A stretch of 64,000 nucleotides of DNA from Parapedobacter tibetensis. Its GTDB lineage: Bacteria > Bacteroidota > Bacteroidia > Sphingobacteriales > Sphingobacteriaceae. The position numbers and the translations under genes are program-made. The notes below the pieces were generated by a model. The model was not told the origin of the DNA and made no database searches. It saw nothing but the letters and a program-made list of their open reading frames with translations. Location: positions 1-64,000 of the forward strand of contig NZ_JAMXBE010000017.1 in the NCBI RefSeq assembly GCF_024704835.1, given 5' to 3'. Within the stretch, counting starts at the first letter, position 1. Each line of letters begins with the position of its first letter. Below are positions 4,631 through 31,900 of the stretch, one piece after another.

Positions 4631-4719
4631 GTTAAGGTGTTGTATGGATAGCTGTTTATAATTGTCTTTAACACACAAAATTAGGAATCGGAATGAAACA
4701 AGCAAATAATCATTGGGAT

Positions 4720-4741: not shown

Positions 4742-4762
4742 TACGGTAAAAGCGGTCAATTG

Positions 4763-5702: not shown

Positions 5703-8174
5703 TCATCGTTTTAACACGTATTTTTTACCTTGTTTTGTCATCACATCAAATTCAGTAAACACGGGGATTGCACTTGTTTGTTTATCTACCGTAGGGTGGA
5801 TGATCGGTTCTTTGATCGGATGCACCGCAAAGAAGGGATTTCGGTTTTCGCCAGTGGCCGGCTCCAACCGCAATTCCGGCGGGCAGTGCTGTTCGGCCAA
5901 CCGGATCCGGCAGTTGCCCCCCAGCTTCGAATAGACCACCAGTTTGGTCAACCGGCGTTGCTTCCACGCCATATCCACCACGAAACCACCCCGGGCCTTC
6001 AAGCCTTTCACCTCGCCATTGGTCCAATGATCAGGCAATGCGGGCAGGAGGTGCAAAGCCCCGTCGTGCGATTGCAGTAGCATTTCCGCGATCCCAGCTG
6101 TACAACCTAAATTTCCATCGATCTGGAATGGCGGGTGCGCATCGAGCAAGTTAGGATAAGTACCCCCGCTCTGTGCCGACTCTTCCTCGCCTGCAGGGCT
6201 CAGTTGGTCGGCGATGAGCTTATACGCCCGGTTGCCGTCGAGCAGGCGGGCCCACAGGTTGACCTTCCATCCCATGGACCATCCCGTAGATTTGTCTCCC
6301 CGATAGACCAGCGATTGCTCGGCTGCCTTGAACAAGGCCGGGTGCCTGATGGGCGATATCTGGGCTGCGGGGTAGAGCCCGTAAAGATGGGAAACATGCC
6401 GGTGCTTATCGCCCGTGCGGTCCCAATCTTCCATCCACTCCTGCAGCTGCCCGAATTTACCCACCTGCATCGGTGCCAGGCGCGCTTTCTTGCTGATGAC
6501 CGTATCCCGGAAATCGGCATCAGTACCCAGTACCTTCGAAGCCTCAATAAACGCCGTGAACACATCGAACACCAACTGGTTGTCCATCGTCGTCCCGGCG
6601 GCAATGCTTACACCTGATTGATGGCCATTTTCGGGCGACATGGACGGCGCCACTACCAGCCAGTTATGTTTGGGCTCTTCTTGCAACACATCCACATAGA
6701 ACATGGTGATGCCCTTCAATACGGGGTAATAGTCCGCCAGGAAACGCTTATCGCCATTGTAGAGGTAGTGCTGCCAAATATGCTGAGTCAACCAGGCTCC
6801 ACCCATTGGCCACATGCCATAGAAACCACCATCAACGACTCCCGTAATCCTCCATAGGTCTGTATTATGATGCATGTTCCATCCACGTGCCTTATACATT
6901 TCTTTTGCGCTCTCCTGACCTGTAATAGCCAAATCTTCAAGCATAGCGAACAATGGTTCATGCGTTTCGCTAAGATTGGTTACCTCAGCTGGCCAATAGT
7001 TCATTTCCGTGTTGATATTGACGGTGTACTTGCTATCCCAAGGAGGAGAAAGCTTTTCATTCCAAATTCCTTGAAGATTTGCTGGCTGACCTCCCGGTTG
7101 TGAGGAACTGATCAATAAATATCGACCAAACTGAAAATATAATGCCACCAAATGTGGGTCATGGGATTTTGCAAATTCTTGCACACGCACATCGGTAGCT
7201 TTTGCCGCTTGAGGGGAAACGCCTAAATCCAACTTTACGCGATTGAACTGTTCCTGGTACTTTTTGCTATGGTTGGCAATTGCCCTTGCATACTTAACCT
7301 TTATAGCCTTATCCAGCATTTCCTGTGCGCTTTGAGCAGGATCGACAGATAAATCATTATATTTCTTAAAATTAGTTCCGATAGCGATGTACAGCACTAC
7401 CTCATCAGCATCTTGAATTTCCAGTTTATCATCACTTTCGATCAACCGACCGCCTTTTAACACGGGCCGAACGATTCCTTTGAAATTGACTTTGCCTACT
7501 TTACTGTCTACCGAACTACTGGTTCCCGACATGGTTAACTGTCCGCTTTCACCACGTACCGTGGCGGAGTTATGCGGCGATGTCAAATTTAGGCTAAACG
7601 AAATACTCTTTTTCTTAGACGACGTCAAACGCACTACAACCACATTATCGGTAAAAGAGGCAAACACTTCTCTCTTGAACGTTGTTTGATCAACCTGGTA
7701 TGAAGTACGGGCTACTGCGTCTTCTATATCCAAGTCACGTGTAAAATTGGTGTAGTTGGCGTGTTCTGGGAAATCTAACCAAAGGCTGCCGAATGTTTGA
7801 TATGGCATGCCATAGTCTAGACCTTCAGGTGCGTGTCTAGGAAAAGCTTCGTTAGACAAAGCTTGTGCCTCATGGGCTTTTCCTGCAGCAAGTAGTGCCC
7901 GAATCTGCTGTATTTTTTCAAAGCTGTTTTTGGGAACATTATTCCCTGGTTCCCCGGCCCATATCGTTTCTTCGTTCAATTGGATTTGCTCCTTCGACGG
8001 GTTTCCAAAAACCATGGCCCCCAATCGGCTATTCCCTATTGGCAAAGCTTCGTTCCACTCCGAAGCGGGCTTATCGTAAAAAAGTCGCAATCGTTGTTCC
8101 TGGGTGACAGACTGGCAAAAAGGAACAACTGCTAAAATGGCTACAACTATCGTATGCAAGACAGGTTTTTTCAT
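5703..8174 (-). CDS. GH95 alpha-L-fucosidase / alpha-L-galactosidase
   Basis: An 823-residue exported enzyme with signal peptide MKKPVLHTIVVAILAVVPFC. The N-terminal GH95 domain contains WNEALPIGNSRLGAMVFGNP. The catalytic region carries the family's polar residues: N386 and N388 in VNINTEMNYW, the acid Glu515 in MSPENGH, and Asp686 in PPFQIDGNLG. GH95 enzymes remove alpha-1,2-linked L-fucose or L-galactose; in a pectin locus an L-galactose or fucose cap on a side chain is plausible. It is the last gene of module 1, 37 bases after GH28. Oddity: base composition changes within the gene. The segment encoding about residues 1-505 is about 42-48% GC in sampled lines, while the rest is about 57-62%, as if two alleles had recombined near base 6650. 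Confidence 0.92.
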   Translation of the reverse strand: MKKPVLHTIVVAILAVVPFCQSVTQEQRLRLFYDKPASEWNEALPIGNSRLGAMVFGNPSKEQIQLNEETIWAGEPGNNVPKNSFEKIQQIRALLAAGKAHEAQALSNEAFPRHAPEGLDYGMPYQTFGSLWLDFPEHANYTNFTRDLDIEDAVARTSYQVDQTTFKREVFASFTDNVVVVRLTSSKKKSISFSLNLTSPHNSATVRGESGQLTMSGTSSSVDSKVGKVNFKGIVRPVLKGGRLIESDDKLEIQDADEVVLYIAIGTNFKKYNDLSVDPAQSAQEMLDKAIKVKYARAIANHSKKYQEQFNRVKLDLGVSPQAAKATDVRVQEFAKSHDPHLVALYFQFGRYLLISSSQPGGQPANLQGIWNEKLSPPWDSKYTVNINTEMNYWPAEVTNLSETHEPLFAMLEDLAITGQESAKEMYKARGWNMHHNTDLWRITGVVDGGFYGMWPMGGAWLTQHIWQHYLYNGDKRFLADYYPVLKGITMFYVDVLQEEPKHNWLVVAPSMSPENGHQSGVSIAAGTTMDNQLVFDVFTAFIEASKVLGTDADFRDTVISKKARLAPMQVGKFGQLQEWMEDWDRTGDKHRHVSHLYGLYPAAQISPIRHPALFKAAEQSLVYRGDKSTGWSMGWKVNLWARLLDGNRAYKLIADQLSPAGEEESAQSGGTYPNLLDAHPPFQIDGNLGCTAGIAEMLLQSHDGALHLLPALPDHWTNGEVKGLKARGGFVVDMAWKQRRLTKLVVYSKLGGNCRIRLAEQHCPPELRLEPATGENRNPFFAVHPIKEPIIHPTVDKQTSAIPVFTEFDVMTKQGKKYVLKR

Positions 8175-8211: not shown

Positions 8212-9891
8212 TTAGTTATTGTTCAATTTAATGGCATCTTCGGTAGCTCCGTATTTAAATTCCATCTTATTTTCCCCAATATTAGAATTTTTAAACAGCA
8301 AGTTCTGAGCATTGCTCCCATTTACTTCTACCAGTGTACTCAGCTCCGTTTTGTAGACCAACCGATCAAAAGTCAAATCCCGGGCACTCTCGATATAGAC
8401 CAATGGATCTACCTCATCTGTATACAAAGCTGCATTCTTAATCGAAATATTTTGTGCATCTTTTATTTCTATCCCTTTATCTGCTGTCAAGAACAAATTA
8501 CTTAGGTAAATATCCTTCACAGGCATTTCGGGAAGACCCCGAACAAACACCCCAACGTTTGCTCCGTTACAGATCACGTTATCAATATATACGTTTCTGA
8601 TTTGGGGTGTCTCAATAGTTACCGGAGGAATTTCCTGTACTTCATTTGCCTTGGGAGGCGCTGTCCAATAGTACATGTCAAAAAAGATAGCTTCATGCAC
8701 GATATTAGACATATTGATATTGCGAATATGAATATTTTCTACAACACCACCACGACCACGAGTCGTCTTAAAACGAATGCCCTTATCGGTTCCCATAAAC
8801 GTACAGTCTTCTACGAAGATATCCCTAGCGCCACCCGACATCTCACTGCCAACCACGAACCCACCGTGACCTAGATAGACTTTGTTACGGCGAATAATGA
8901 CTTGTTCGGTGGCTATTCCCCTTTTGCGGCCTTCTTCGTCTTTACCCGATTTGATACAGATGGCGTCATCACCGACGTCCAATACACAGTCTTCGATCAA
9001 CACGTTCGAGCAAGACTCGATATCGATTCCATCCCCATTCTGCGCATAATCCGGATTCTTGATCATTAGATTCCTCAGTGTGATATGCTGGCACATCAAC
9101 GGATGGACATTCCAGGCTGGCGAGTTTTGTAATGTCACCCCTTCGATCAATACTTTTTTGCAGTTAGTGAGCATCAACATGTTGGGACGCAAATAATCTT
9201 TGATATCTTCAAAATCAGCCAGTGCTTTTCCTTCCGACAACAGTACTGAGCGTTTCTCCTCATGGGCTAACTTTGTTTTTTCTGAAGGAAACCATGTTTT
9301 ACCATCTGCGCTGACCAAGCCTCCTGAATCCAGCTTTCTGCGCCATTCACCATCCGTCAGCGCACCCCTGCCAACCATTCTCCAAGCATCACCATTGCCG
9401 TCAATCGTCCCTTTTCCGGTCATCGCTATATTTTCCAGGTCCTTACCACTAATTGGTGATTGGTTACGTGCTGACGGTTTTCCCTCATAGTTTCCTTCTA
9501 CGATCTCATACTGGTCAAAATCCGATGTAAATTGCAGAAATGCATTGTCGTCCAAATGCAGGTTTACGTTGCTTTTTAATGCTATCGGGCCAGACATCCA
9601 ATAACCAGCCGGTATCAACACCACACCTCCTCCTTTTTTGTTACTGGCCCTAATTGCCTCATTGATACTTTTGGTATTCAATGTGCGCCCATCTCCTTTA
9701 GCCCCAAAATTCCGGATGTCGATGGTGTCTTTAGGAAATACCGGTTCATGAATAGTTGGAAGGTTGGACCAACTGTATTGGCTTGTATGATTTATAAACG
9801 AGGATTGTCCCAGTAGATCATTTGAGTAAGGGAGAGACGTTATGACCAAAGCAGTAATCCACAGATTTTTTTTGAGTTTAACGGGTTTCAT
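8212..9891 (-). CDS. GH28 polygalacturonase
   Basis: A 559-residue protein with an N-terminal hydrophobic export signal (about residues 10-28). It opens its catalytic domain with DIRNFGAKGDGRT and folds as a right-handed beta-helix. The GH28 active-site motifs are all present in order: NGDGID (D290), GDDAICIKSG (D308, D309), GHGG (H342) and RFKTTRG (K375). It hydrolyses alpha-1,4 bonds of galacturonan. An insert at about residues 175-235 (after DAWRMVGRGALTDGEWRR) is longer than in minimal GH28 enzymes and is seen in Bacteroidota exo-type forms, so exo-acting galacturonidase is the likelier mode (inference). It lies between PL1 and GH95 on the same strand, in the low-GC module 1. Confidence 0.93.
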   Translation of the reverse strand: MKPVKLKKNLWITALVITSLPYSNDLLGQSSFINHTSQYSWSNLPTIHEPVFPKDTIDIRNFGAKGDGRTLNTKSINEAIRASNKKGGGVVLIPAGYWMSGPIALKSNVNLHLDDNAFLQFTSDFDQYEIVEGNYEGKPSARNQSPISGKDLENIAMTGKGTIDGNGDAWRMVGRGALTDGEWRRKLDSGGLVSADGKTWFPSEKTKLAHEEKRSVLLSEGKALADFEDIKDYLRPNMLMLTNCKKVLIEGVTLQNSPAWNVHPLMCQHITLRNLMIKNPDYAQNGDGIDIESCSNVLIEDCVLDVGDDAICIKSGKDEEGRKRGIATEQVIIRRNKVYLGHGGFVVGSEMSGGARDIFVEDCTFMGTDKGIRFKTTRGRGGVVENIHIRNINMSNIVHEAIFFDMYYWTAPPKANEVQEIPPVTIETPQIRNVYIDNVICNGANVGVFVRGLPEMPVKDIYLSNLFLTADKGIEIKDAQNISIKNAALYTDEVDPLVYIESARDLTFDRLVYKTELSTLVEVNGSNAQNLLFKNSNIGENKMEFKYGATEDAIKLNNN

Positions 9892-9928
9892 AAATTATAG
9901 CTATCGTATTAAATCTTGTAAAAGGTAT

Positions 9929-11401
9929 TTAAATCTGTTCTTTCGTGATGTGTTCTACTATACTGTTGAGATAAACTTCCAAATAGGTATATCCGTCTTC
10001 ATTGATGTCCTCGGCTTTTTTGGTTGGGTGATGTTTTTCCAACCAACCGTCGGGTATACCATCCCTATCGCTGTCGAGAATCGGTATGCCAGAATCCAAT
10101 ACCGGCCAAGCCAACCACGTTTCATCTTTAGGGTTCGGATTTAGGTCTTGTTGCGAATCGATAATTCCTTTGCGAGGATAGTTTGCGCTTTTCCATTTCC
10201 CTCCCTTACCGTTGTGTTCACTTTTACCGATAAACTGAGCGGTCCCTGTTGCGGTTTCATGAACAATGCGTTGATCGATAGCATCCCTATGTAGGGAAGC
10301 CCCAACGCATGCCAACACTTTTTCATAAGCGGTATGGGCATCGTGTGTATGTATCCTGCCCCTTACGGGCACATCTTGGTCAAGTTTAATATTCTTCATC
10401 TTTTGATCGCCGACAATGCTAACGCCAAGCCAGTTGTTTTTAGAAAAGCGGTCATCATGTGGCAGCACATTCCCTGCAATGTAATACCTGCCCCACACAC
10501 CTTTGATGGAGGGAAATGGCCTGCTCTCTGTTTTCGCGTTGAGGGCAACGATTCGATCTCCAATGCGGTTTTCTGTTGCAGGCCCCCGCTTGTAGTAATT
10601 GTTGACAATATTGATGTGCATGGCCTCGCCTCCATATGCTCCATTGCCATTCCAGTTATAGATGACATTGTTACGCATGTCGGTCGTATCGTGACCCGCG
10701 TATTTCGCGCCGGGTCCTAAGCGCGGTGTACGACTATCGTGATGCGCTAGGAGATTATGATGAAAAGAAGCGTGAACGCCTCCCCAAATAGCCCCGTAGC
10801 CATGTGCGCCTTTGGAGTGCCCGGAAAGGCGCAAGCTTTCTGAAATAATGCACCATTGCATCGTGAAATTCAGGTTGTCGTAGAAGGAAGAACATTCGTC
10901 GGTACCCCAGCTTATCGAACAATGGTCTATCATAATATCTTTATTCTTCCCACCACTAAAGGCGTCCGCTCCGTCCGCTTCTTCTTTGGAAATATGGAGG
11001 CCGCCCATGCGGAATCGGAGATACCTGACAATGACGTTGTCTGCACGTATAGCGACGGGAAAACCGGCAAGCGTAATTCCCCCTCCCTGCGCCGATTGGC
11101 CCACGATAGTTACATCACCTTTATCAATCGTAAGCCGGCTGTTCAACACGATCGTCCCTCCGGTTTTGAACACAATAGTACGAGGGCCTTCTTGATTCAA
11201 GCACCATCTCAGCGATCCTTCCCGCCGCATGGCATCGCCGTTATCGTTGTCTTCTAATGTAGTGACATAATAGACCTCTCCCCCACGTCCTCCCATCGTG
11301 TACATCCCTCCTCCTTCAGCGCCGGGAAAAGCCGGCGTTTGTGCAGATACGTACAAAGTATATCCGAGAGTAGCCAAAAATATGCAGATTAGTTTCTTCA
11401 T
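9929..11401 (-). CDS. PL1 family pectate lyase, module 1
   Basis: 490 residues with signal peptide MKKLICIFLATLGYTLYVSA. The domain starts PAFPGAEGGGMYTMGGRGGEV, typical of Bacteroidota PL1. Beta-helix motifs follow: DHCSISWGTDE (159-169, Ca-binding/active-site strand) and HHNLLAHHDSRTPR (214-227, with the catalytic Arg in the RTPR segment). Near the C-terminus DSDRDGIPDGW is a calcium-binding thrombospondin-3/dockerin-like loop. The enzyme cleaves de-esterified galacturonan by beta-elimination. It has its own 365-base upstream region, so it may have its own promoter rather than reading through from CE8. It is more diverged from the PL1 at 25992 than the gutted PL1 at 12845 is. Confidence 0.93.
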   Translation of the reverse strand: MKKLICIFLATLGYTLYVSAQTPAFPGAEGGGMYTMGGRGGEVYYVTTLEDNDNGDAMRREGSLRWCLNQEGPRTIVFKTGGTIVLNSRLTIDKGDVTIVGQSAQGGGITLAGFPVAIRADNVIVRYLRFRMGGLHISKEEADGADAFSGGKNKDIMIDHCSISWGTDECSSFYDNLNFTMQWCIISESLRLSGHSKGAHGYGAIWGGVHASFHHNLLAHHDSRTPRLGPGAKYAGHDTTDMRNNVIYNWNGNGAYGGEAMHINIVNNYYKRGPATENRIGDRIVALNAKTESRPFPSIKGVWGRYYIAGNVLPHDDRFSKNNWLGVSIVGDQKMKNIKLDQDVPVRGRIHTHDAHTAYEKVLACVGASLHRDAIDQRIVHETATGTAQFIGKSEHNGKGGKWKSANYPRKGIIDSQQDLNPNPKDETWLAWPVLDSGIPILDSDRDGIPDGWLEKHHPTKKAEDINEDGYTYLEVYLNSIVEHITKEQI

Positions 11402-11766
11402 GATGTTTATTTATTTAACAAAATACTAGTCATAATAAATAGTCTAACGGCTTTTGGATCGTTGTTAGCGAGCAAACGAGTGTTCTTTTCCTTGCCCTTT
11501 TGCTTCCACAAGTATAGAGAAATCGTCTAGTCAAACAGTTCAAAAATTGACACAAAAGGTTTGTAATTTCAATTTTAGGCCTATGAAATTGTTTTTTAAG
11601 TGCCTGAATGTCATTTTGTTGTGTTTATTTCTTTAGCTCATCATACGAATATTACATGGAGGCGATTGAAAACGCCCCTAGTTGCATGCATCCACTCGCT
11701 CGGATAGGAAGAATCTTGTGAACTATTATAAACAAAATCGTGGGATTTGGCCGACAACCGCTCGGG
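11402..11766. promoter_or_regulatory. Upstream region of the module 1 PL1 gene
   Basis: A 365-base AT-rich gap without a convincing ORF. It holds tcaaaaattga at 11540-11550, the same 11-base core (in reverse) as the repeated element upstream of SusC1 at 21006-21042, and a weaker ttcaatttta near 11568. On the minus strand TATACTTG at about 11511-11518 is one mismatch from the Bacteroidota -7 box TAnnTTTG. A promoter for PL1-GH28-GH95 controlled by the same sensor as SusC1 is a reasonable reading, but not proven. Confidence 0.35.
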
Positions 11767-12843
11767 TCAATCTTGGGTAACAATTGCCGCATCAACAAAC
11801 GACGGATGTTGGTTACCGATAACCTTTTCGTACGAAAAGGTTTGTACTTGTTCTTCGGTTAGCTGGTGGGACCACGGCACCCTCGTGCTTGGGCTCGCTC
11901 CCTCACCTTTAGAATTATACTCTGCATAAAACGCAGTCCTTTCATTGTCGGCATTATTCCAGTTGTGCCAGCCTGCCTGATGGATATGCTTGTTCAATTC
12001 ACACTGCAGATAAACAACACTAGCATTGGGTCGCCACGGTCTTCCGAGATAAACTGAGCTGTCCCCAACGTCTGGTACCGATGTAAAATGGCACTTATTG
12101 AACACGTAACCAAACGATTGATTTGCGGGAGTGGAGGCTGCTGTAATATAACCATTTCGGGTACTTACCACGTGACAATGGTCAAAGAAAGCCGTAGAAC
12201 CTCCAAATATAAAATCGACAGACCCTTCGATATAGCAATCCTCCAAGTATTGTATAGTGCCTTCGGCCGCATACCAAGTGTCTTGATGGCCTAGAAAACG
12301 ACAATTGCGAAAGGATGATCTCGCGGCACCAATATTGATGGCCAAAGCCTGCCCCGCCGCTATGCCAGCAGTATTTTCGAATGTAATCTTTTCAGCGACA
12401 AAATAGCTGCCATTAGCAAAAAATGACGAAGAGCCGCTGGTACCATACGCTGTACCGTCGGGTCTCAGGCGTTTTGCATAGTTATCATACGTAAGAATGG
12501 TCTTATTGACATCCTCGCCTATTAAGTATATATATTCCTTACCATGCGGAATCGTGATCACTTCTTTGTAAGTGCCAGCTTTAATAAAAATATAGCAATA
12601 AGATCTGCTATTGGTTGGTGCAGCATTTATCGCTTCTTGAACCGTTTCAAAATCGCCACTGCCGTCGGCAGCAACCACTAAGTCGGCCTTAATAACATTG
12701 GTTTCGTTAGGTGCTGTCGTTTCATTCGTATCTTTTCCTTTCTTTTTAGCGCAAGACGTCGCGGCAGGAGATATTGAAAAAGCAATGATGATGCAAGCCA
12801 GTAGACTGGTCATACCGCTGCACCACTTATGGGTCATGATCAT
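11767..12843 (-). CDS. CE8 pectin methylesterase lipoprotein
   Basis: 358 residues with a lipoprotein signal ending AATSC (Cys31). The CE8 beta-helix begins LVVAADGSGDFETVQEAINA. Its catalytic motifs are intact: GQALAINIGAARSSFRNC, GHQDTWYA (Asp188), EGSVDFIFG (Asp210, nucleophile) and YLGRPWRP (Arg268). It removes methyl esters from homogalacturonan, which makes it a substrate for the neighbouring pectate lyases. Its start lies one base from the stop of the gutted PL1, so the two are surely co-transcribed. It is the intact counterpart of the CE8 pseudogene at 25536 in module 2: both share the C-terminal signature GWHNWNN. Confidence 0.93.
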   Translation of the reverse strand: MIMTHKWCSGMTSLLACIIIAFSISPAATSCAKKKGKDTNETTAPNETNVIKADLVVAADGSGDFETVQEAINAAPTNSRSYCYIFIKAGTYKEVITIPHGKEYIYLIGEDVNKTILTYDNYAKRLRPDGTAYGTSGSSSFFANGSYFVAEKITFENTAGIAAGQALAINIGAARSSFRNCRFLGHQDTWYAAEGTIQYLEDCYIEGSVDFIFGGSTAFFDHCHVVSTRNGYITAASTPANQSFGYVFNKCHFTSVPDVGDSSVYLGRPWRPNASVVYLQCELNKHIHQAGWHNWNNADNERTAFYAEYNSKGEGASPSTRVPWSHQLTEEQVQTFSYEKVIGNQHPSFVDAAIVTQD

Positions 12844-12844
12844 A

Positions 12845-13516
12845 TTATTTGACAGGATTCGTTAAACTATTGATATACACTTCTATATTATCGTATGCCG
12901 TACTGAGGTCTCTGCCATTTGCGTTAGGTTTTTGAGGATCTAAATTATTCGCAATTTCCCAATCATCAGGCATTCCATCATTATCAGTGTCTTTGGGTGA
13001 AATTACACTGTTCAAAACTGGCCAGCCGCCAACATCGTGAGGTCTATCAATAATGCCGTTTCTACTATATTGATCCCCGCTGGAGCCATGTGCAGTAAAT
13101 GACCCATTCCTGACGTCATTGATGATACGGATGTCTACATCATCTCTTTTGAGACTTGCACCAGCATGTTGTAATACTTTTTCATAAGCCTCCTGAGCCG
13201 AGTGGGTAGTGACATTATTCGCTACATCATGCGGTTCGGTTAAACGCATGGCTATCTTAATAACTCTTCCTCCTCTCCCTCCGGTTACTTTACGCCCAAA
13301 GCCTTCTGCGCCGAGAAAAGCCAAGGCTTCCTCTTCTATAGGTGTATTCGGATCTTCATCACTGGTAGCAGAGTTACTTTTCCCACAGCCCATTAAGAAA
13401 AGCATCATAAAAACACCTATACCGAAATGGGCTTTAAATTTGAATAGATCCAACCTTAGTGGTGAAACGCTTATACTAACTGCTACATGATTACTTGAAT
13501 AATTCATTTTTATCAT
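12845..13516 (-). CDS. PL1-derived lipoprotein lacking the catalytic beta-helix
   Basis: 223 residues. The N-terminus is a lipoprotein signal (MMLFLMGC) and the PL1 opening EEEALAFLGAEGFG with GGRGGRVIKI. The sequence then jumps straight to the PL1 C-terminal region AQEAYEKVLQHAGASLKRD, through DTDNDGMPDDWEIANNLDP, to STAYDNIEVYINSL. Compared with the 490-residue PL1 at 25992, about 285-290 residues (roughly 77-365) are missing, including the DHCSMSW and HHNLLAHH strands. The reading frame is kept across the junction. It cannot be a pectate lyase. It may be a dead remnant still translated for operon continuity, or a retained cell-surface stub with a calcium-binding loop. A 115-base gap separates it from the DUF5123-type gene upstream. 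Confidence 0.8.
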   Translation of the reverse strand: MIKMNYSSNHVAVSISVSPLRLDLFKFKAHFGIGVFMMLFLMGCGKSNSATSDEDPNTPIEEEALAFLGAEGFGRKVTGGRGGRVIKIAMRLTEPHDVANNVTTHSAQEAYEKVLQHAGASLKRDDVDIRIINDVRNGSFTAHGSSGDQYSRNGIIDRPHDVGGWPVLNSVISPKDTDNDGMPDDWEIANNLDPQKPNANGRDLSTAYDNIEVYINSLTNPVK

Positions 13517-13631
13517 ATTATTTGTCTAAATACGGATGAATCGGCCTCCGTTAAGAGACTAATTCATCCATTAACATTTGATTTTTTGAATCTGACCATG
13601 CGCCCCAAATGACACGCCCCTTCCTCCTTTG

Positions 13632-15257
13632 CTAGTCAAACCACCTCGGATCTCCAGCGGTGCCGCGCCCACCAAAACCATTCCCGGCCTTGATGCTAAA
13701 ATTGCGCTGTTCTGGATTGACAAACAGATCAGCTGTAGTGCCATCGAAAATGGTGATGTTAGCAAAATCACGAGAAGCCCGCTCAATTTGCAATTCGGCT
13801 GTCCTATAGCTTCCTGCAAAAGAAACGCCCAGGCCAAAATTAGCATGATCATAACTTGTGGCATTGATGCTAGCACCACTGTTTGTTCCTGCAATAATAT
13901 TGTTGTTTATTGTCAGCGCTAACGGCAAGCGGTTCGTATCAAAGCGCAGCAATTGAGACATTCCCAAATTTTGATTATAGAACGTACAGTTTTCAATCAC
14001 AATGCTTGCCACGCTCACACGCACATCCATCAATTGTGTGGCCAAATCAGTCAATGTACTATTAGTAAAAGAAACCAGGTCGACAGATGCCGTACTTCCG
14101 CCAATATTCACGACTCCCCACCCTCCGTTTCTATTGACCATACAGTTATCAAACGTGACATGTCGTACGCTTACACTATTATTTAGGCGAACTACCCCGT
14201 TTCCAAACCCTTCAATATAACAGTTGGCGAACGAATACCCTGCTGCTTCAGCGCCGTTCTGATCCTGCGTGATCAAGAAAGCGCTTCCACTAACGGCATG
14301 GATGTCAACATTCTCAAAAATCACCTCCCCATACACGATATCCGCAAATCTGAATGAACTGAGGTTTAATTTTGGTTTATTCCCATTGGCATCGGGTTCG
14401 CCGGTAACACTCACGTTGGACACACCTAATGGCAATGTCAACGCACCTAAATCATACGTTTGGTTTCCTGAAAACATCAAAATGACATTGGGTTCCCCTG
14501 CTGCAATCGCTGCTGAAACCAGCGTGGGAATATCATCCCCAGGGCTAATGGGAATGATCTCGCCCCCATCCAATCCCGATGTCCTTAAAATCCTTGAACC
14601 GCGCTCTACATCGTCGTTGTAGATAGCTGCCCTATAATAAGTGCCCGGTTCAAGGTCAGTGATCTCGATCGAACCATTCGTCTTGTCACTTTCGGTCAGG
14701 TCTATTCTCTTTAGCTCAAGATTGCTTAACGTATCGAAAACACTGATATGAGTGACCCTGTCACTAGGGGACCAATGCATTACAATACGGTCTATATAGG
14801 TCTCCCAAGAAGTAAACAGCTGTTCGGCGGTCGTTTGAAAGTGTATTTCAACGTACTTGGACTCTTCCCCTGTTTTGGTATTGATGCCTTTCATGCGGGC
14901 AGCATAGTTAGCGCTTCCATCTAACTCATCAAACACTATACGATATTCAACTCTTGCTGGTGAAGTGGACGGAGCAAATGGAGTAAGGGTATCCGCCAAA
15001 ATCTCAACCGCTTTTACAATCTCACTAAATTCATGATCATCTGTACTGAATTCAAAAATATACTTGTCTGCAGAAACGATCTGCGTATACCTAATCTCGA
15101 CCTCCGTAGCCGCTACATGACTTACATCGAAAACGAGTGGCCTGAATAGCCTTTGATACGAGAGATCGACCTCCCAATCATTTATTTTTTTCTCACAACT
15201 CGTTATAGCAGCTATTCCTACAACAAAGAGTGCCAATTTGAAAATTATCTTTTTCAT
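13632..15257 (-). CDS. DUF5123/DUF4957-type beta-helix lipoprotein, module 1
   Basis: 541 residues, lipoprotein signal MKKIIFKLALFVVGIAAITSC. Residues about 30-220 look like fibronectin-III-type modules (DKYIFEFSTDD; GTYYRAAIYN). The remainder is a right-handed beta-helix with short N-rich turns (FANCYIEGFGNGVV, FDNCMVNRNGGWGV) ending AGDPRW. This layout is that of the DUF4957/DUF5123 proteins that follow SusD in pectin loci. The place after susD, where SusE/SusF-type glycan-binding proteins usually sit, and the pectin-lyase-like fold suggest a surface pectin-binding protein. No lyase or hydrolase residues were recognised. A paralogue occupies the same position in module 2 (28392). Confidence 0.75.
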   Translation of the reverse strand: MKKIIFKLALFVVGIAAITSCEKKINDWEVDLSYQRLFRPLVFDVSHVAATEVEIRYTQIVSADKYIFEFSTDDHEFSEIVKAVEILADTLTPFAPSTSPARVEYRIVFDELDGSANYAARMKGINTKTGEESKYVEIHFQTTAEQLFTSWETYIDRIVMHWSPSDRVTHISVFDTLSNLELKRIDLTESDKTNGSIEITDLEPGTYYRAAIYNDDVERGSRILRTSGLDGGEIIPISPGDDIPTLVSAAIAAGEPNVILMFSGNQTYDLGALTLPLGVSNVSVTGEPDANGNKPKLNLSSFRFADIVYGEVIFENVDIHAVSGSAFLITQDQNGAEAAGYSFANCYIEGFGNGVVRLNNSVSVRHVTFDNCMVNRNGGWGVVNIGGSTASVDLVSFTNSTLTDLATQLMDVRVSVASIVIENCTFYNQNLGMSQLLRFDTNRLPLALTINNNIIAGTNSGASINATSYDHANFGLGVSFAGSYRTAELQIERASRDFANITIFDGTTADLFVNPEQRNFSIKAGNGFGGRGTAGDPRWFD

Positions 15258-15281
15258 GATTCATCGCTATTTACAGATTCA

Positions 15282-17309
15282 TTAATAACCGTAAGCATTC
15301 GTTAAGAAACCTCTTGACTCTCTTATATCGTCAACATAGATAGGAAAAGGATATCTGTAGTTACACACGCCATTGCCCATTCTATATTGATTTAACAATG
15401 ATTGTATTTCACTTCCGTAGGTAAGCGTAGACAAAAAGCTGGAGTAATCATATGAGGCCATTAGCCCGGTTCCTGCCAAAAGAACTCTTACAGGCCACAT
15501 GGTATAATTATATATTTGGCCGGGTTGTACATTTTCAGGTTTTTCTGCTGCAGTTGGAAACCAGTTTACTGAAAGATAGTCTCCTCCCGGATTAGCGGGA
15601 AGATCCCCATAATAATTCAAAGAAGACTGATCGATATATTCAGCATTTCTAAATCTGTAGTACACCGTTTTAGGAAAATCCGTAGGTTGGTAGGTTTTGT
15701 CAAAGATCTTCACTGGTTGCTTATTGTCATACATCAGGCACAGCGCCTTTTTCATATCTTCAATCTTATCAAACAACAGCCCCCATCTCACCAGGTCCTG
15801 CTTACGGATCGATTCCCCTCCAAATTCCCATGCCCTTTCGTGGATGATGGCATCCAGAAAATTGGCATCATACGTATAGATATTGGGTGAACCTACACCA
15901 AATGCTCTTTCACGAACTTTTTCAAGTGCCTGGCGAGCGGATATTCCAGCCGATTGGTGTACAGCATCCGGCCCTTCCAACTGACTCAATGCTTCTGCAT
16001 ACATCAAATATACATCCGAATAGCGCATCAAAATCCAATTGACACCGGTAGCAATGCGGCTGGTTGCCGTTCTGTGCATCGCCAAATAAGCATCCGACAT
16101 CCAGTAAATACGCCATTTACCCAACTTTACATCATTAGGATTGGTGCTTATCGACTCTCTGTTTTCTGCAGTATATTGCAGCCAAGTCAACGTAACATCT
16201 CTTCGTTGGTCTTCTCGATCGAACGAGTAAAAATAATAGGCGGTAGAAGTCACGTAACTGCCTCCAAAACCACGCGTCCCGTACCTGGAGTTGCCTGCAA
16301 CACCGTACCCCATCAGCGAACCAATATCTCCGTTGTTACCCATTCCAAAGGCAATTTCAAATAGGTTTTCGTTATAGGTGCTTTGCCGTCCGGCACATAC
16401 GGATTCCCAAATGTTTTGGAAACTTGGATCTAGGTCATGTGGATTTTCCCCGGACCCCAGCATTTCAGCGGTATGCTGCACTGCAATCTGGTAGTAGTCT
16501 CTCCAATTTTGAGGACGCCCTACATAATAACCGTTGACTTCCGGAATAGAGGGATGTCTTTCGGCCGTCGAGTTGGGAAATAAGCTGGCATCTCTTAAAG
16601 ACCATCCGCCAGCAAAGAGGGCCACTCTCGCCAAAAGCCCTTTCGCAAAACCTTTGGTAATTCGCTCCACTGTGCTGTACTCTGAGTCGGCGCCCTTCCA
16701 AGGCAAATATGACTGAGCTTCATCTAAATCTTCAATTAAATAATGGTACACCGTATCTTTGTCCATCTTACCCATGTAAACATTCGTCAGGTCAGATTTG
16801 GAAGCTTCCTTCTTATAAGGTACATCTCCCCAATACCTTGTCAATTCAAAAAAAGCAAGGGATTTAAGCGTTAAAGCTTCTCCTAATAAAGGCATCATTT
16901 GTGCGGCATCGCTTTCCAAAATGGGGGAATTTCGGATACCGTCTACCACAGCAGTTGACATTTCTGCAAATTCATATAAGCGTTGCCAACGGGTTGTTTG
17001 ATTGTTTGGATCTCCAAAGAAATTCCCTGCTCCATAGTCACTTGTCGGAGAATTATATTGCGTTTCACTAAACGATCCGTTTGATTCTATATCCGAAACC
17101 CCCTGCCAGTTTACAGAAAGCTTTTGCCCATAAATATTAGCATCTGTCATTCTACCATATAGCCCCATTACAGCAGCTTTGGCCATTGAACTCGTATTAA
17201 ATACAGTTTCAGGACTTAAAGATGATGGCGAACTTGTCTCCAAGAATTTCTTACAAGAGGCGAAAACCACCAATGAAACAATGGAAATCAATAACAATAT
17301 CTTTTTCAT
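15282..17309 (-). CDS. SusD/RagB-family outer-membrane glycan-binding lipoprotein, module 1
   Basis: About 675 residues from ATG 17309, chosen because MKKILLLISIVSLVVFASC is a standard lipoprotein signal; in-frame starts at 17318 and 17333 exist, the last overlapping susC. The mature protein begins KKFLETSSPSSLSPE, the classic SusD opening, and continues with TPR-like helices (WQRLYEFAEMSTAVVDGI) and the SusD C-terminal pattern (WEFGGESIRKQDLVRWG, ending with FYPIYVDDIRESRG-like residues). It caps the SusC transporter and captures oligogalacturonide at the surface. The stop of susC lies 10 bases upstream. It is longer than the module 2 SusD (614 residues). Confidence 0.95.
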   Translation of the reverse strand: MKKILLLISIVSLVVFASCKKFLETSSPSSLSPETVFNTSSMAKAAVMGLYGRMTDANIYGQKLSVNWQGVSDIESNGSFSETQYNSPTSDYGAGNFFGDPNNQTTRWQRLYEFAEMSTAVVDGIRNSPILESDAAQMMPLLGEALTLKSLAFFELTRYWGDVPYKKEASKSDLTNVYMGKMDKDTVYHYLIEDLDEAQSYLPWKGADSEYSTVERITKGFAKGLLARVALFAGGWSLRDASLFPNSTAERHPSIPEVNGYYVGRPQNWRDYYQIAVQHTAEMLGSGENPHDLDPSFQNIWESVCAGRQSTYNENLFEIAFGMGNNGDIGSLMGYGVAGNSRYGTRGFGGSYVTSTAYYFYSFDREDQRRDVTLTWLQYTAENRESISTNPNDVKLGKWRIYWMSDAYLAMHRTATSRIATGVNWILMRYSDVYLMYAEALSQLEGPDAVHQSAGISARQALEKVRERAFGVGSPNIYTYDANFLDAIIHERAWEFGGESIRKQDLVRWGLLFDKIEDMKKALCLMYDNKQPVKIFDKTYQPTDFPKTVYYRFRNAEYIDQSSLNYYGDLPANPGGDYLSVNWFPTAAEKPENVQPGQIYNYTMWPVRVLLAGTGLMASYDYSSFLSTLTYGSEIQSLLNQYRMGNGVCNYRYPFPIYVDDIRESRGFLTNAYGY

Positions 17310-17319
17310 TTTCAACATT

Positions 17320-20300
17320 TTAAAATGTAACATTTAATCCAAACAATACTTTCCTTGATTTTGGATAAGCAGAATAACCTACTCCTGGAGTTAATGGATT
17401 GCGCTGTGTATCCACCTCCGGATCTTGACCTGTATAGTTTGTCCAAACATGTAAGTTATAGCTCGCCACGTAAACCCGTAATCGTTGCATCAATAGTTTA
17501 TTAGCTATAGATGACGGCAGTGTATAACCTAATGTTAAATTACTTAGGCGTAAGAAAGATCCATCTTCAATAGCCCAATCGGTCAGAATACGACCGTTAG
17601 CTGCGGCTGGATTCCACATGATCTTCCCTTCATTCAGCTCACGGAAAAGGATAGGATCTGCATTATTTCCAAACATGATATTCGCTCCTGTTACGGGGTC
17701 TATGGTAGTAAACCTTTCAGACAAACTCATGTTACTGCTAATATTCTGGTATTTTTTGGATCCCTCGTAGGCTGCAAAGTCAACTTTATCAGCGTTATAG
17801 ATATCATTTCCATAAGACCAATTGAACATAGCCGTCAAATCAAAATTCTTGTATTGGCTATTTAATGTAAACCCACCTGTATGTTTAGGCTGAGCACGGC
17901 CAATCACTACCCGATCTTCCTCAAGAGAAATCTCAGTACCTTCACCGCTCATTTTTTTCAATTTGATATGGCCCGGCCCAAAATAATTACCCGATCGGCT
18001 CATGACCGTGGATGCGTCTGCCACCCCCTCATTGAGCACCCACCTATTCATGTCATGGTCAAAAGTGAAGTCGTCAAAGCTATAGTATCCATCAGAAACA
18101 AAACCATACATCAGCCCTACTGACTGCCCCACTATTGCTCTAAAGTCGTCACGACCAAAATCCAACCAAGGTGAAGCTGGCGTATTCATTTCATCTAAGC
18201 CGTCGATCAATGACCTGATTTTGTTTCTATTAAAAGCGATGTTGAAATCAGCAGATAATCTAAAATCACGTTTATCCACAATGACAGCAGAAGCGGCAAA
18301 CTCAAGACCTCTATTTTGTGTACTGCCCACATTTTGATACTGTTGGGCATATCCAGAGCTTGATGGTAGGGGCACTTGAAGAATCAAATCCTTTGTAATA
18401 TTGTTGTAGGCATCCATGGCGAATGTAACCCTATTGTTAAAGAGACTTACATCCAAACCCACGTTAGAAGAAGAGGTACTCTCCCATGTCAGGTTCTCAT
18501 TTTTCAGTGTATTCTGAGTCCGAAGGGCACTCTGTGGGATTTCATTGATATAGTATAGCTGGTTGCCTGCGGTTACAAACCCATACTCCTGCCTCCAATA
18601 TGAGCCGACTCTTGCATTTCCAACGGCACCATGGCTCAGGCGTACTTTGGCATCAGATAACCACGAAGTGGTATTTTCCATAAATGCTTCGTCTGAAAAT
18701 CGCCATGCGAAGGCAGCACCGGGGAAAAAGCCCCATTGATTGCCGGGCGCAAAAACATTCTTACCGTCTGCTCTTCCGACGAACGTAAAAATATATCGAT
18801 CATTGAACGTGTAATTGATACGCGAAAAGAACGACGACGTTCGGGAGGGTTCGCGAATGGTGGTGTAGGTCGGTTGAGGGGTACCATAATTCCACATCGC
18901 CAGCACATCGTCGGCAGTGAAATCATGCGGGTAGAATTTAGATTCAAGCAACATATCATTACGTTGGCTATTGGTTAATTCTTGCCCTCCGACAATGGTA
19001 AACCGATGTTTATCGTCTTGCAAATTAAGATCATAGGTCAAGACGTTTTGAATAGACCACAATGTGCCTTTTTGATCTTCTCTCCGTGCCACGGGTTGAC
19101 CGCCGTTGGCACTAGACTGACCTGTTCCTTTTACCCAAATATTGTCTGTAAAATCCTTGTTAAACCCAAATGAACCTTTTGTGCTAAGACTTAAACCATT
19201 AGTGATTTTCCAAGTAAGACCGCTGTTAAATGTTGCATTAAAACGGTTTTGATCTTTGTACTCATTCACAACATTAATTACAGGATCTTGCAATGAACTT
19301 AATGCTTCTGCAGATGTAATATCTTCGGCTCCTCCTAAAGCATCTTCATTAAGTGACGCCAAACTTCTAACTGGGGCATATTTAACGCCTTCTCTCAATT
19401 TTCTTCCGCTTGAAATACTCGGACCTGTGATCTTCGTATTGGACATCCGGGAATTAAATTCAAATGAGAGCTTGGGACTAATCTTTTTGTTTAATTTAGC
19501 ACTCACATAGTCACGCTGATAAGCCGAATTAAGCATAATATAGTCTTCACCATCACGCGTGTAATTCAAGTTGTAATTCAACGAACCTTCTTTATCCCCT
19601 CCTGTCAATCCTAAACTGTAGTTCTGTTGCAACCCAACATTTCCATATAATTTGTCCTGCCAGTTGATGCCTTCCTTAGATTTATAGATGTCAATATCTT
19701 CCCATAAACCATACATGGAATTAAAGCTGTTATTAGCAGCCATCGATGGATCTAGTTCTCTCTGCCAATAGACATATTCGTACGGAGATAAAACTTCGGT
19801 TAGATTATAAACATTACTGACAGCGGCAAAAGAGTTGAATGTAACTTGTGATTTTCCTCCACGACCTGATTTTGTTGTGATTAAAATTACACCATTTGCT
19901 CCTTCTGAACCATAGATTGCTGTCGAAGCCGCATCTTTCAGCACATCGATTGTCTCAATATCTGTCATGGGGATATCGTTTATATTAGCAACGCGAAACC
20001 CGTCAACTATATAAAGTGGAGAATTGTCTTGTGTAATGGATCCTCCTCCGCGCACGCGCACTTTGATCTCCGCGTCCGGCGAGCCTTCTGTAATCGTCAC
20101 ATTTACTCCTGGTAGACGCCCTGCTATTGCTTGAAGTACTGAAACAGCGGGTATGTCACGTAGTTCATCGGCATTTATGGAGGCTACCGAACCTGTCAAA
20201 TCCTTCCTTCTCGCCGTACCATAGCCAATAGCGACAACTTCATCTATTGCAAATGAGCTTTCCTGTAAAACGAGATCAATTTTTGTACGTCCTTCGACCG

Positions 20301-20727
20301 CTATTTCCTGAGATTCCATCCCAATCGAACTGAAAATTAAAATTGCAGTTTCGGGGATTCCCCTTATTGTATATACGCCATCCGCATTTGTAGCTGCATT
20401 CTTGGACTCTCCTTTGACATTCACCCCGACTCCGGCAAGCGCTACTCCATTATTGTCCGTCACTTTTCCCGTCACGTCAATTGTTCTTTGAGGATACCCC
20501 TCCCCAAAGGTGGCCTCCGAATCCCTATAAAATGTTTCGGGTTCCAAAGATGAAGTAATTCTTGAACCATAGGCCGTGTGAAAAGCAATCCCCAGCAAAA
20601 AGAGTGAAATCCCGAACCTAAGCGCAACTGAGCACGAAAGCCTAAATCCGCACAATGTTACCTCTCCAAAGTCAGATCTGAAAAGAGAAGCCTTGGATTT
20701 ACATAAGTTAAAGTTTAGTATATTCAT
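17320..20727 (-). CDS. SusC/RagA-family TonB-dependent transporter, module 1
   Basis: 1135 residues. After an unusually long, basic leader (hydrophobic segment about residues 36-52) comes a carboxypeptidase-D-like domain (VTGKVTDNNGVALAGVGVNV), a TonB-box region (IDEVVAIGYGTARRKDL), the plug (GRLPGVNV; GGGSITQDNSPLYIVDGF; IDVLKDAASTAIYGSEGANG) and a 22-strand barrel ending KVLFGLNVTF. It imports pectin oligosaccharides with SusD. The plug motif GGGSITQDNSPLYIVDGF is identical in the module 2 SusC, supporting common ancestry of the two modules. It is the first gene of the module 1 operon. Confidence 0.96.
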   Translation of the reverse strand: MNILNFNLCKSKASLFRSDFGEVTLCGFRLSCSVALRFGISLFLLGIAFHTAYGSRITSSLEPETFYRDSEATFGEGYPQRTIDVTGKVTDNNGVALAGVGVNVKGESKNAATNADGVYTIRGIPETAILIFSSIGMESQEIAVEGRTKIDLVLQESSFAIDEVVAIGYGTARRKDLTGSVASINADELRDIPAVSVLQAIAGRLPGVNVTITEGSPDAEIKVRVRGGGSITQDNSPLYIVDGFRVANINDIPMTDIETIDVLKDAASTAIYGSEGANGVILITTKSGRGGKSQVTFNSFAAVSNVYNLTEVLSPYEYVYWQRELDPSMAANNSFNSMYGLWEDIDIYKSKEGINWQDKLYGNVGLQQNYSLGLTGGDKEGSLNYNLNYTRDGEDYIMLNSAYQRDYVSAKLNKKISPKLSFEFNSRMSNTKITGPSISSGRKLREGVKYAPVRSLASLNEDALGGAEDITSAEALSSLQDPVINVVNEYKDQNRFNATFNSGLTWKITNGLSLSTKGSFGFNKDFTDNIWVKGTGQSSANGGQPVARREDQKGTLWSIQNVLTYDLNLQDDKHRFTIVGGQELTNSQRNDMLLESKFYPHDFTADDVLAMWNYGTPQPTYTTIREPSRTSSFFSRINYTFNDRYIFTFVGRADGKNVFAPGNQWGFFPGAAFAWRFSDEAFMENTTSWLSDAKVRLSHGAVGNARVGSYWRQEYGFVTAGNQLYYINEIPQSALRTQNTLKNENLTWESTSSSNVGLDVSLFNNRVTFAMDAYNNITKDLILQVPLPSSSGYAQQYQNVGSTQNRGLEFAASAVIVDKRDFRLSADFNIAFNRNKIRSLIDGLDEMNTPASPWLDFGRDDFRAIVGQSVGLMYGFVSDGYYSFDDFTFDHDMNRWVLNEGVADASTVMSRSGNYFGPGHIKLKKMSGEGTEISLEEDRVVIGRAQPKHTGGFTLNSQYKNFDLTAMFNWSYGNDIYNADKVDFAAYEGSKKYQNISSNMSLSERFTTIDPVTGANIMFGNNADPILFRELNEGKIMWNPAAANGRILTDWAIEDGSFLRLSNLTLGYTLPSSIANKLLMQRLRVYVASYNLHVWTNYTGQDPEVDTQRNPLTPGVGYSAYPKSRKVLFGLNVTF

Positions 20728-21124
20728 TCAAATTGGTTTATAATTTTTATGATATTTAATTCTCTCTGCACCTGAATGCTACCACGTCCTTGCCGCATAA
20801 AGTTGATTGACTAAAAACCAACATCACTTGCTGTTACTTACTGAAACAAGAAGTCGCTTCTAATACACTTTGATTTACCACAAAACAGTGATTAAGAAAA
20901 CTCGGCCTATCTAACTGGTTTATAATTTTTAATTGATCTTCCTATTTCCCTCTAAATTTGGAGAACAAGAAGATGCAGCAAAGCTAAAAGCCAGTCGTTT
21001 TATAAAGGTTCAATTTTTGATTATTTAGGTTCAATTTTTGAAAAGTGCCCCATATATAGCTTATGAGCACAAAAAGACATTTATTGCAGGAAATAAAGTC
21101 AAAAAAATGACTCAACATCACCGG
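20728..21124. promoter_or_regulatory. SusC1 upstream region with two sets of direct repeats
   Basis: This 397-base gap between SusC1 and the HTCS gene has no gene. It contains aggttcaatttttga at 21006-21020 and again at 21028-21042, a 15-base direct repeat with 22-base spacing (two helical turns). That is the expected geometry for an AraC-type output domain such as the adjacent HTCS carries. A second 16-base repeat (tggtttataattttta) sits at 20734-20749 and 20916-20931, 182 bases apart, within the likely leader. Confidence 0.5.
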
Positions 21125-25465: not shown

Positions 25466-25535
25466 GGACTAAAATCATCCTGATAATCTTCTTTCAAAGC
25501 TACAGGTTTATCTTGAAAAAAGTATAATCAGCCAA

Positions 25536-25949
25536 TCACTCCATGGTTAGTTCAGCATCAATAAACGGTTGCCAATCACCGAGAACCTACCCGTAAGTAT
25601 ATTGCCCCAGATCGGCCTGTGTAAGCTGACTCGACCAGGAAACACGTTTACCTTCTTGATAACCCAGCCCGGTGGATTGGTACTCGGCATAATAGGCCGT
25701 TCCCTCATTGTCCGGATTGTTCCAGTTATGCCAGCCCTCCGGGCGGATATGCGCCCCCATTTCGCACGAGAGGAAAACGACCTGCGCATACGGGCGTGTC
25801 CAGATAAACCGAAGCCGTATCCACGGTCACGTCCGCCGTCAGCATGCATCGGTCAAACACATAGCCATGCCGCTGGTATCCCACCCCACAGCCTCCGAGG
25901 TGGTCATCACGATCAGGAAAATCAGCAGGTAAACGATACCTTGTTTCAT
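25536..25949 (-). pseudogene. CE8 pectin methylesterase remnant, module 2
   Basis: An ATG at 25949 opens a signal peptide (MKQGIVYLLIFLIVM). Within about 20 codons the sequence jumps, in a shifted frame, to CE8 C-terminal sequence: QRHGYVFDRCMLTADVTVDT and TASVYL. A further small deletion and frameshift removes the RPW part of the YLGRPW motif. The next frame reads YAQVVFLSCEMGAHIRPEGW, NWNNPDNEGTAYYAEYQSTG and VSWSSQLTQADLGQYTYG, then TAG, then VLGDWQPFIDAE to TGA at 25536. The two catalytic Asp motifs are gone. It aligns with the intact CE8 at 11767 over its last 110 residues. It starts 42 bases after the intact PL1 of module 2, where a CE8 gene would be expected. Confidence 0.88.
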
Positions 25950-27464: not shown

Positions 27465-27566
27465 TATTTTAATATTTATTTTTTACTGGCCCGGGAAATC
27501 CACCGGCAAGTCTCGGGAATCAATCCAACACGCTGCAATTGCCTATAATACTTCATTCGGTTTTCT

Positions 27567-28340
27567 TCAATCAAAATCGAGCTCTTTCATTGCGTCAAAC
27601 ACAAGTCCTGCCACCGCACGGGCGCCAGCGGGCTGGAAGTGCGTGTTGTCTTTCTGCCCGTCGGGGTAGGCCGGGTACCGGCCCGCTTCCAGGTTCATGA
27701 AATAGTTGGTCGTGACATAGTCCTTCCCTTTGGATGAGAACACATCCATCGACAGCTGGTTTAGGTCGATAAGCGGTACCGCTAACTCGGCGGCAACGGC
27801 CTTGACGGCATCCGGATATTCCCGATGCACATTCTGGAGATGCTCGTCTTTCCACGGGTAATTCCGGGCCACGGGAGTCAGCAATATCGGCTTCCCTCCT
27901 TTTTCCCTCGTTTGCGACACGAATAGTCGCAGAAACTCTTTATAGCCTTCGATATCGACATAACGTTCGGTTTTGTCCACTGCGCCGTCATTATGGCCAA
28001 ACTGCACCATGACGATATCGCCAGGTTTCAAGGCTTCATAAACCGCGCGCCAGCGTCCCTCTTGGAAGAATGTCCGCGTACTCCGGCCACCTTTGGCCCG
28101 GTCGTCCACGCGCACGCTGTCTGTGCCGATAAATGGGATTTCCCCGCTTTGGAAATCATGAAAGTAGGATCGAAATTCCTGTCCCCATCCGGCCACTGGA
28201 TAACGCTTACTTTGGTAATCAGCCTCCAAGGTATAATCTGCCACCGTTGAATCGCCTATCAGATATATCGTTGTGACGCTGCTCGTTTCAAAAAAAGATA
28301 ATAAAAGAGAAAAAAGCGTCAAAAAGGTTGGTACCATCAT
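27567..28340 (-). CDS. CE12 rhamnogalacturonan/pectin acetylesterase (SGNH hydrolase)
   Basis: 257 residues with a short hydrophobic export signal (MMVPTFLTLFSLLLSFF). SGNH blocks are in order: GDSTVADY (nucleophile Ser31), KGGRSTR (block II Gly), FGHNDGA (Asn117) and DNTHFQPAGA (Asp231, His234). This pattern, including the ARGGRSTR-like and GHNDG segments, is that of rhamnogalacturonan acetylesterases, which remove O-acetyl groups from galacturonic acid residues and expose the backbone to lyases. It lies between the DUF5123-type lipoprotein and PL1 in module 2 and has no counterpart in module 1. The codon use is GC-rich. Confidence 0.92.
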   Translation of the reverse strand: MMVPTFLTLFSLLLSFFETSSVTTIYLIGDSTVADYTLEADYQSKRYPVAGWGQEFRSYFHDFQSGEIPFIGTDSVRVDDRAKGGRSTRTFFQEGRWRAVYEALKPGDIVMVQFGHNDGAVDKTERYVDIEGYKEFLRLFVSQTREKGGKPILLTPVARNYPWKDEHLQNVHREYPDAVKAVAAELAVPLIDLNQLSMDVFSSKGKDYVTTNYFMNLEAGRYPAYPDGQKDNTHFQPAGARAVAGLVFDAMKELDFD

Positions 28341-28391
28341 ACTACTCTCCTGTTTAATTTCTCTTGTCCAAATATTCGTTTAACTAGTAAA

Positions 28392-30038: not shown

Positions 30039-30044
30039 TGGTAT

Positions 30045-31889: not shown

Positions 31890-31900
31890 AGCTTCAATCT

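What the first reader, a model, noticed from the sequence alone, without database searches (positions are those of the whole stretch)
5703..8174. GH95 gene looks like a recombinant of two alleles
Sampled 60-base lines are about 57-62% GC up to about 6650 and about 42-48% from there to the start of the gene. The change falls near residue 505-515, beside the catalytic MSPENGH motif, with no break in frame. The low-GC composition then continues through module 1 to about 25,540. So module 1 may have arrived by homologous recombination with one crossover inside GH95.
Basis: partly seen in the sequence, partly recalled or inferred. Interest (0 to 1): 0.68.

Follow-up and report, generated by a model that had tools for sequence, protein, structure and literature searches.

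The report
Hybrid GH95 enzyme joining two PULs
A sugar-cutting enzyme gene in a Bacteroidota bacterium is a natural hybrid: its first 55-57% comes from one lineage and the rest from another, and the join sits where one pectin-digesting gene cluster appears to have been spliced into a second one.

Summary
Third-position GC of the GH95 gene jumps from 0.42 to 0.70 near codon 452 (support 440-469), and an independent residue-based breakpoint falls at residues 447-476 (window about 6,747-6,836), not 505-515. None of 100 homologues shows such a step. Separate trees disagree strongly. Residues 26-460 are sister to a Sphingobacteriaceae GH95 (G047) inside a Parapedobacter/Sphingobacterium clade. Residues 495-795 are sister to Dyadobacter, beside Olivibacter. 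AU tests reject the reciprocal placements (p = 1.5e-6, 6.8e-9 and 7e-4). The assembly holds no duplicate of the joint and no reciprocal half. So the gene is an in-frame recombinant of two homologues only about 60% identical in DNA. Module 1 matches a complete Sphingobacterium pectin PUL in which GH95 is the last gene. Module 2 matches another PUL type that also carries a GH95, and a broken pectinesterase of that type lies at module 1's far end. The best reading is that module 1 joined a resident PUL between its pectinesterase and its GH95. Direction is less certain than chimerism, because composition alone points the other way. Mosaic genes and PUL exchange are known; this is an unusually clear, distant case.

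The parts
6837..8174 (-). GH95 residues 1-446: N-terminal beta-sandwich and first part of the (alpha/alpha)6 barrel, Sphingobacterium/Parapedobacter type, GC3 0.42
   Evidence: 77-80% aa identity to P. composti L028 and G047 L159 but 55-57% to Dyadobacter/Olivibacter; tree
6747..6836 (-). Switch interval (residues 447-476), inside the conserved block DGGFYGMWPMGGAWLTQHIWQHYLYNGD
   Evidence: Residue-based breakpoint; GC3 change point at codons 440-469
5703..6746 (-). GH95 residues 477-823: rest of the barrel with acid E515 and D686, C-terminal beta domain; Dyadobacter/Olivibacter type, GC3 0.70 (last 25 codons AT-rich)
   Evidence: 75-76% aa identity to L036 and L129 but 61-62% to L159/L028; tree and AU tests
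8212..25465 (-). Module 1: HTCS, SusC, SusD, DUF4957/DUF5123, internally deleted pectate lyase, pectinesterase, pectate-lyase-like 490 aa, GH28, then GH95; mostly GC3 0.39-0.44
   Evidence: Pfam/NCBIfam; same gene order in Sphingobacterium-type PULs of G171, G174, L030 with SusC 79% and SusD 83-84%
25466..25545 (.). Right-hand joint of module 1, between the end of the pectinesterase remnant and the HTCS start; GC falls here
25545..25949 (-). Pectinesterase remnant: start with signal-like peptide plus about the last 115 residues, catalytic middle missing, frame broken
   Evidence: tblastn; C part 70% to the pectinesterase just upstream of GH95 in G107, 67% to that of the G053 PUL
25992..35161 (-). 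Module 2: SusC, SusD, DUF4957/DUF5123, GDSL esterase, pectate-lyase-like 490 aa (GC3 0.66)
   Evidence: Pfam; three relatives among 251 family genomes, each with a GH95 in or next to the PUL

Best explanation
The GH95 gene is an in-frame natural chimera. A Sphingobacterium-type pectin PUL (module 1: HTCS-SusC-SusD-...-GH28-GH95) was joined to the 3' part of a different, Dyadobacter/Olivibacter-type GH95. The switch lies within a conserved 28-residue stretch of the catalytic barrel. Inferred: the receiving locus was a second pectin PUL (module 2: SusC-SusD-DUF4957-GDSL-lyase-pectinesterase-GH95). Module 1 landed between its pectinesterase and its GH95, by recombination guided by shared GH95 sequence at one end and a less clear junction next to the now broken pectinesterase at the other. 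Inferred: the product is still an active exo-acting alpha-L-galactosidase/fucosidase-type enzyme, whose water-activating Asn pair (N386, N388) and T384 come from one parent and whose acid E515 and D686 come from the other.
For: Chimera (shown): the window gene ranks first of 127 homologues for N/C discordance (score 40.6; next independent 15.8). The N tree places it with G047 (100/96), the C tree with Dyadobacter (99/89) and Olivibacter (99/99). AU tests p = 1.5e-6, 6.8e-9, 7e-4. One breakpoint at residues 447-476; a second does not improve the fit. GC3 change point agrees. The neighbouring parent L159 is of one type throughout. Context: module 1 is a whole PUL elsewhere, with GH95 last and 66-67% identical overall. 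Module 2 relatives carry GH95; in G107 the pectinesterase sits directly upstream of it. Pectinesterase remnant at module 1's far end. GH95-C shares high GC3 with its left flank (0.59-0.68) and the module 2 lyase (0.66). Function: Pfam GH95 domains across the whole protein; catalytic residues invariant in 40 homologues and aligned with 4UFC; intact predicted fold, mean pLDDT 85.7, pTM 0.89.
Against: By genome composition the C part (99th percentile) is odder than module 1 (9th-16th), so GC alone would call the C part foreign. The C part is closest to Dyadobacter/Olivibacter, not to the GH95s of the module 2 relatives G107/G053 (67%), so it may come from a third source. The left flank (1-4,705) is not shared with any relative, and the contig ends at window base 1. 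Parent groups for the breakpoint score and the AU tests were chosen after seeing the data.
Confidence: 0.68

Rival explanations
1. Two steps: module 1 entered with its complete GH95 just upstream of a resident GH95 in the same direction, and a later deletion between the two tandem genes fused the N part of one to the C part of the other.
For: Gives the same product with the register kept. GH95 copies in one direction do flank PULs in Olivibacter-type genomes (G067, G076, about 23-29 kb apart). In-frame internal loss is seen in a neighbouring lyase gene.
Against: No remnant of the lost parts exists in the genome; sequence alone cannot separate this from one-step exchange.
Confidence: 0.25
2. 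Module 1 with its own whole GH95 was there first, and only the 3' 43-45% of GH95 was replaced, by conversion from a Dyadobacter/Olivibacter-type GH95 of GC-rich DNA.
For: The C part is the more unusual composition for this genome; its closest relatives are not the GH95s of module 2-type PULs.
Against: Needs a separate explanation for the pectinesterase remnant, for the GC-rich left flank, and for why module 2 lacks the GH95 that its relatives have. Residues follow the C-type to the last codon, so no second breakpoint inside the gene is seen.
Confidence: 0.2
3. Assembly artefact: two GH95 genes mis-joined at a shared stretch.
For: The locus is 5.7 kb from a contig end, and reads were not available.
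Against: The 401 bp around the joint match nothing else in the assembly beyond chance 15-30 bp hits; neither the missing N half nor the missing C half is in the genome; the frame is intact over 823 codons; the longest exact match between parent-type representatives across the switch is 17 bp.
Confidence: 0.03
4. No recombination: a composition gradient or domain-specific selection inside one inherited gene.
For: Some genes here do show internal GC3 steps.
Against: Trees and AU tests, and absence of the step in 100 homologues.
Confidence: 0.01

Closest known systems
PUL exchange by homologous recombination between shared 'node' core genes in Bacteroides ovatus/xylanisolvens (PMC8845570)
   Same: A PUL-sized block moves without mobile-element signatures and joins where sequence is shared.
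   Different: There the joints are proposed in conserved flanking core genes of close relatives. Here one joint is inside a PUL enzyme gene, between parents about 60% identical in DNA.
GH95 alpha-L-galactosidase BACOVA_03438 (PDB 4UFC) and alpha-1,2-L-fucosidase AfcA (2EAB)
   Same: Same domain layout and catalytic motifs; Thr at the L-galactose position (PMC4491172).
   Different: This enzyme is a two-parent hybrid, and lies in a pectin rather than a xylan PUL.
Rhs genes with GC-rich core and AT-rich tip
   Same: Sharp GC3 step inside one frame, seen in this same genome.
   Different: That pattern is a family-wide architecture (own knowledge). The GH95 step is unique to this gene among its homologues and has two identified parent clades.

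Membership tests
Intragenic recombinant (mosaic) gene | Parts of one gene with significantly different phylogenies | tested here: met
Intragenic recombinant (mosaic) gene | A located breakpoint supported by sites on both sides | tested here: met
   residues 447-476; GC3, 440-469
Intragenic recombinant (mosaic) gene | Near-identical donor found (helpful for dating, not required to call a mosaic) | tested here: inconclusive
   Parent clades are identified but distant: best 80% (N) and 76% (C) aa identity; no close donor among 251 family genomes, 395 phylum genomes and 80 collection loci
Intragenic recombinant (mosaic) gene | Joint verified in raw reads | not testable with these tools
   Only assembly available; joint is unique in it
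GH95 | N-terminal, catalytic and C-terminal GH95 domains | tested here: met
   PF14498, PF22124, PF21307
GH95 | Asn pair, acid Glu and Asp of the active site | tested here: met
   N386/N388, E515, D686 invariant, aligned with 4UFC; roles from PMC4491172 and PMC11943901
GH95 | alpha-L-galactosidase or alpha-L-fucosidase activity | not testable with these tools
   Needs expression and assay
PUL transfer by recombination at flanking core genes | Joints lie in conserved flanking core genes | tested here: not met
   One joint is inside GH95, the other beside a broken pectinesterase
Mobile-element-borne PUL | Integrase/transposase or tRNA at the ends | tested here: not met
   None among the main genes scanned from 0.7 to 51.7 kb; no tRNA in the window

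The most novel reading that the evidence does not exclude
Shared terminal enzyme genes of PULs act as recombination nodes between genera, even at about 60% DNA identity, so that whole PULs are stacked into composite PULs and hybrid enzymes with both parents' active-site parts are made as a by-product, possibly with new specificity.
Probability: 0.25. Interest if true: 0.7.

Novelty: new member of a known kind. Interest (0 to 1): 0.5.

Why it matters
Exchange of PULs by recombination is documented mainly between close relatives and at flanking core genes. Here the joint is inside a catalytic domain, its parents are far apart, and the residues thought to work together in catalysis come from different parents. 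That makes it a ready natural experiment on how divergent two homologues can be and still recombine into a working enzyme, and on how composite pectin PULs arise.

Tried and rejected
A first extraction of homologues failed because locus orientation was misread, and was redone. I tested whether the GH95 fragment at G000:C9:76,214 is the displaced original C half: it is not (62% to the L008 type, 49-54% to the two parent types). A conversion tract with a second breakpoint near the AT-rich tail was rejected, since residues stay C-type to the end. Orthologues of the left-flank gene at 2,453-4,705 were sought in 61 family genomes and gave only 29-31% matches, so the flank could not settle the direction. 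A wider hunt for a close C-half donor in 395 phylum genomes found nothing above 68%. GC3 steps larger than this one in the genome were traced to a DUF6443/RHS-type gene and the neighbour of another.

Full report
OBSERVATION. The GH95 gene is one open frame, 8174->5703, 823 codons. Composition does change within it. GC3 is 0.42 before and 0.70 after the best change point at codon 452 (support 440-469); the likelihood ratio is 62, against 3.6-22 in 13 homologues. In 100 homologues the difference in GC3 between the two parts is -0.013 on average, sd 0.042, maximum 0.099; here it is +0.23. In a 0.70 Mb sample of the genome plus the window (202 ORFs of 400 aa or more) it is the third largest internal step. 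The two larger ones are in a DUF6443/RHS-type gene and in the neighbour of another, a type known for a GC-rich core and AT-rich tip (own knowledge). The last 25 codons are AT-rich again, but their residues remain of the C type.

RECOMBINATION. I collected 127 distinct GH95 homologues. Residues 26-470 are 80% identical to G047 (L159), 77% to P. composti (L028) and 74-76% to Sphingobacterium species, but 55-57% to Dyadobacter psychrotolerans (L036) and the Olivibacter-type genes L129 and L039. Residues 481-795 reverse this: 73-76% to L036/L129/L039 and 61-62% to L159/L028. Ranked by such discordance the window gene is first of 127 (40.6). The next two are high only because their best N partner is the window gene itself, and the next independent one scores 15.8. 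Maximum-likelihood trees of 49 sequences put the N part as sister to L159 (100/96) inside the Parapedobacter/Sphingobacterium clade, and the C part as sister to L036 (99/89) within a four-member clade with Olivibacter (99/99). AU tests reject the reciprocal placements: p = 1.5e-6 for the N part, 6.8e-9 and 7e-4 for the C part. These groups were named after the trees were seen, so the p values are somewhat optimistic. The nearest N parent, L159, is of one type throughout.

BREAKPOINT. A site-by-site comparison of the two parent groups gives one switch at residue 474 (within 2 log units: 447-476), and a second breakpoint adds nothing. The parent groups were picked with knowledge of the answer, so its permutation test is not independent evidence. 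The interval is the conserved block DGGFYGMWPMGGAWLTQHIWQHYLYNGD, and the parents can hardly be told apart inside it. Parent-type DNA sequences are about 58% (N) and 62% (C) identical overall, 67-83% in five-codon bins across the block, with longest exact shared runs of only 8-17 bp among the sampled representatives. True parents are not sampled, so the shared runs at the time may have been longer.

ARTEFACT CHECK. 401 bp around the joint have no second copy in the assembly (only chance 15-30 bp matches), and the reciprocal halves are absent. Another GH95 fragment, at 76 kb on the same contig, is of a third type. A misjoin is unlikely but needs reads to exclude.

SURROUNDINGS. Module 1 (8,212-25,465) encodes HTCS, SusC, SusD, DUF4957/DUF5123, an internally deleted pectate lyase, pectinesterase, a pectate-lyase-like protein, GH28 and then GH95. 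The core order HTCS-SusC-SusD-DUF4957-pectinesterase-GH28-GH95 occurs in G171 and G174, and most of it in S. corticibacterium, with SusC 79%, SusD 83-84%, GH28 72-74%, and GH95 as the last gene. Module 1's GC3 (mostly 0.39-0.44) is near that of G171's PUL (0.42-0.49). Module 2 (25,992-35,161) is a different type. Only three other genomes of 251 family genomes searched have a SusD of this type (56-63%), and all three have a GH95 in or next to the PUL: in G107 the order ends pectinesterase-GH95, in G053 pectinesterase-lyase-GH95, and in G102 GH95 lies upstream. In the window, module 2 lacks its own GH95. Between its last lyase and the HTCS of module 1 lies a broken pectinesterase (start plus about the last 115 residues, frames disrupted) whose C part is 70% identical to the pectinesterase beside GH95 in G107 and 67% to that of the G053 PUL. 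Thus the pectinesterase-GH95 neighbourhood of a module 2-type PUL appears to be split by module 1.

MECHANISM. Shown: hybrid gene, single switch, two modules of different ancestry, broken pectinesterase at the far joint. Inferred: module 1 is the incomer; the GH95 joint was made by recombination between homologues (register kept exactly, switch in a conserved block); the other joint (25,466-25,545) was less orderly. A two-step route (insertion beside a resident GH95, then deletion between the tandem genes) gives the same product. Composition does not settle the direction: genome GC is 46.3% and median GC3 0.51, so module 1 is mildly low while the GH95 C part is at the 99th percentile. The C part is also closer to Dyadobacter/Olivibacter than to the GH95s of module 2 relatives, so a third source is possible.

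FUNCTION. The hybrid keeps all GH95 domains. N386/N388, E515 and D686 are invariant in 40 homologues and align with the alpha-L-galactosidase 4UFC, whose acid Glu501, Asn372/Asn374 and L-galactose-contacting Thr370 are described in PMC4491172; in AfcA, Asp766 activates the Asn residues (PMC11943901). The window enzyme has Thr (T384) at the Thr370 position. The water-activating Asn pair and T384 come from the N parent, the acid and the Asp from the C parent. AlphaFold predicts an intact fold (mean pLDDT 85.7, pTM 0.89); the joint falls in a loop (low confidence at 444-448) and the following barrel helix 458-473. Activity is untested.

NOVELTY. Mosaic genes are common, and recombination of PULs between related Bacteroides is described, with joints at conserved core genes and an expected decline with divergence (PMC8845570). 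This case has its joint inside an enzyme gene, between parents about 60% identical in DNA. It is a clear new member of a known kind.

Noticed in passing
window 4749-5600: Tandem array of 21-bp units (147-bp higher-order period, 3.6 copies, 97% match), with TAG codons recurring in reading frames, between GH95 and the next gene.
   Followed up: partly
window 12845-13516: A 223-aa gene is a pectate lyase with an in-frame internal deletion of about 283 residues relative to the intact copy in L031/L199.
   Followed up: yes
G000:C9:76214-76783 (L004): Fragment of another GH95 (C-terminal 190 residues, one in-frame TAA), 62% to the L008/L014 type.
   Followed up: partly
L124:2497-9481 and L108:638-7835 (ends of contigs C67 and C1): Pairs of large genes, one of each pair with DUF6443 (RHS-type), that include the largest GC3 steps found in the genome sample, at codons 880-955.
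   Followed up: partly
window 2453-4705: 750-aa protein with no Pfam or NCBIfam match and only 29-31% relatives in 2 of 60 other family genomes.
   Followed up: partly
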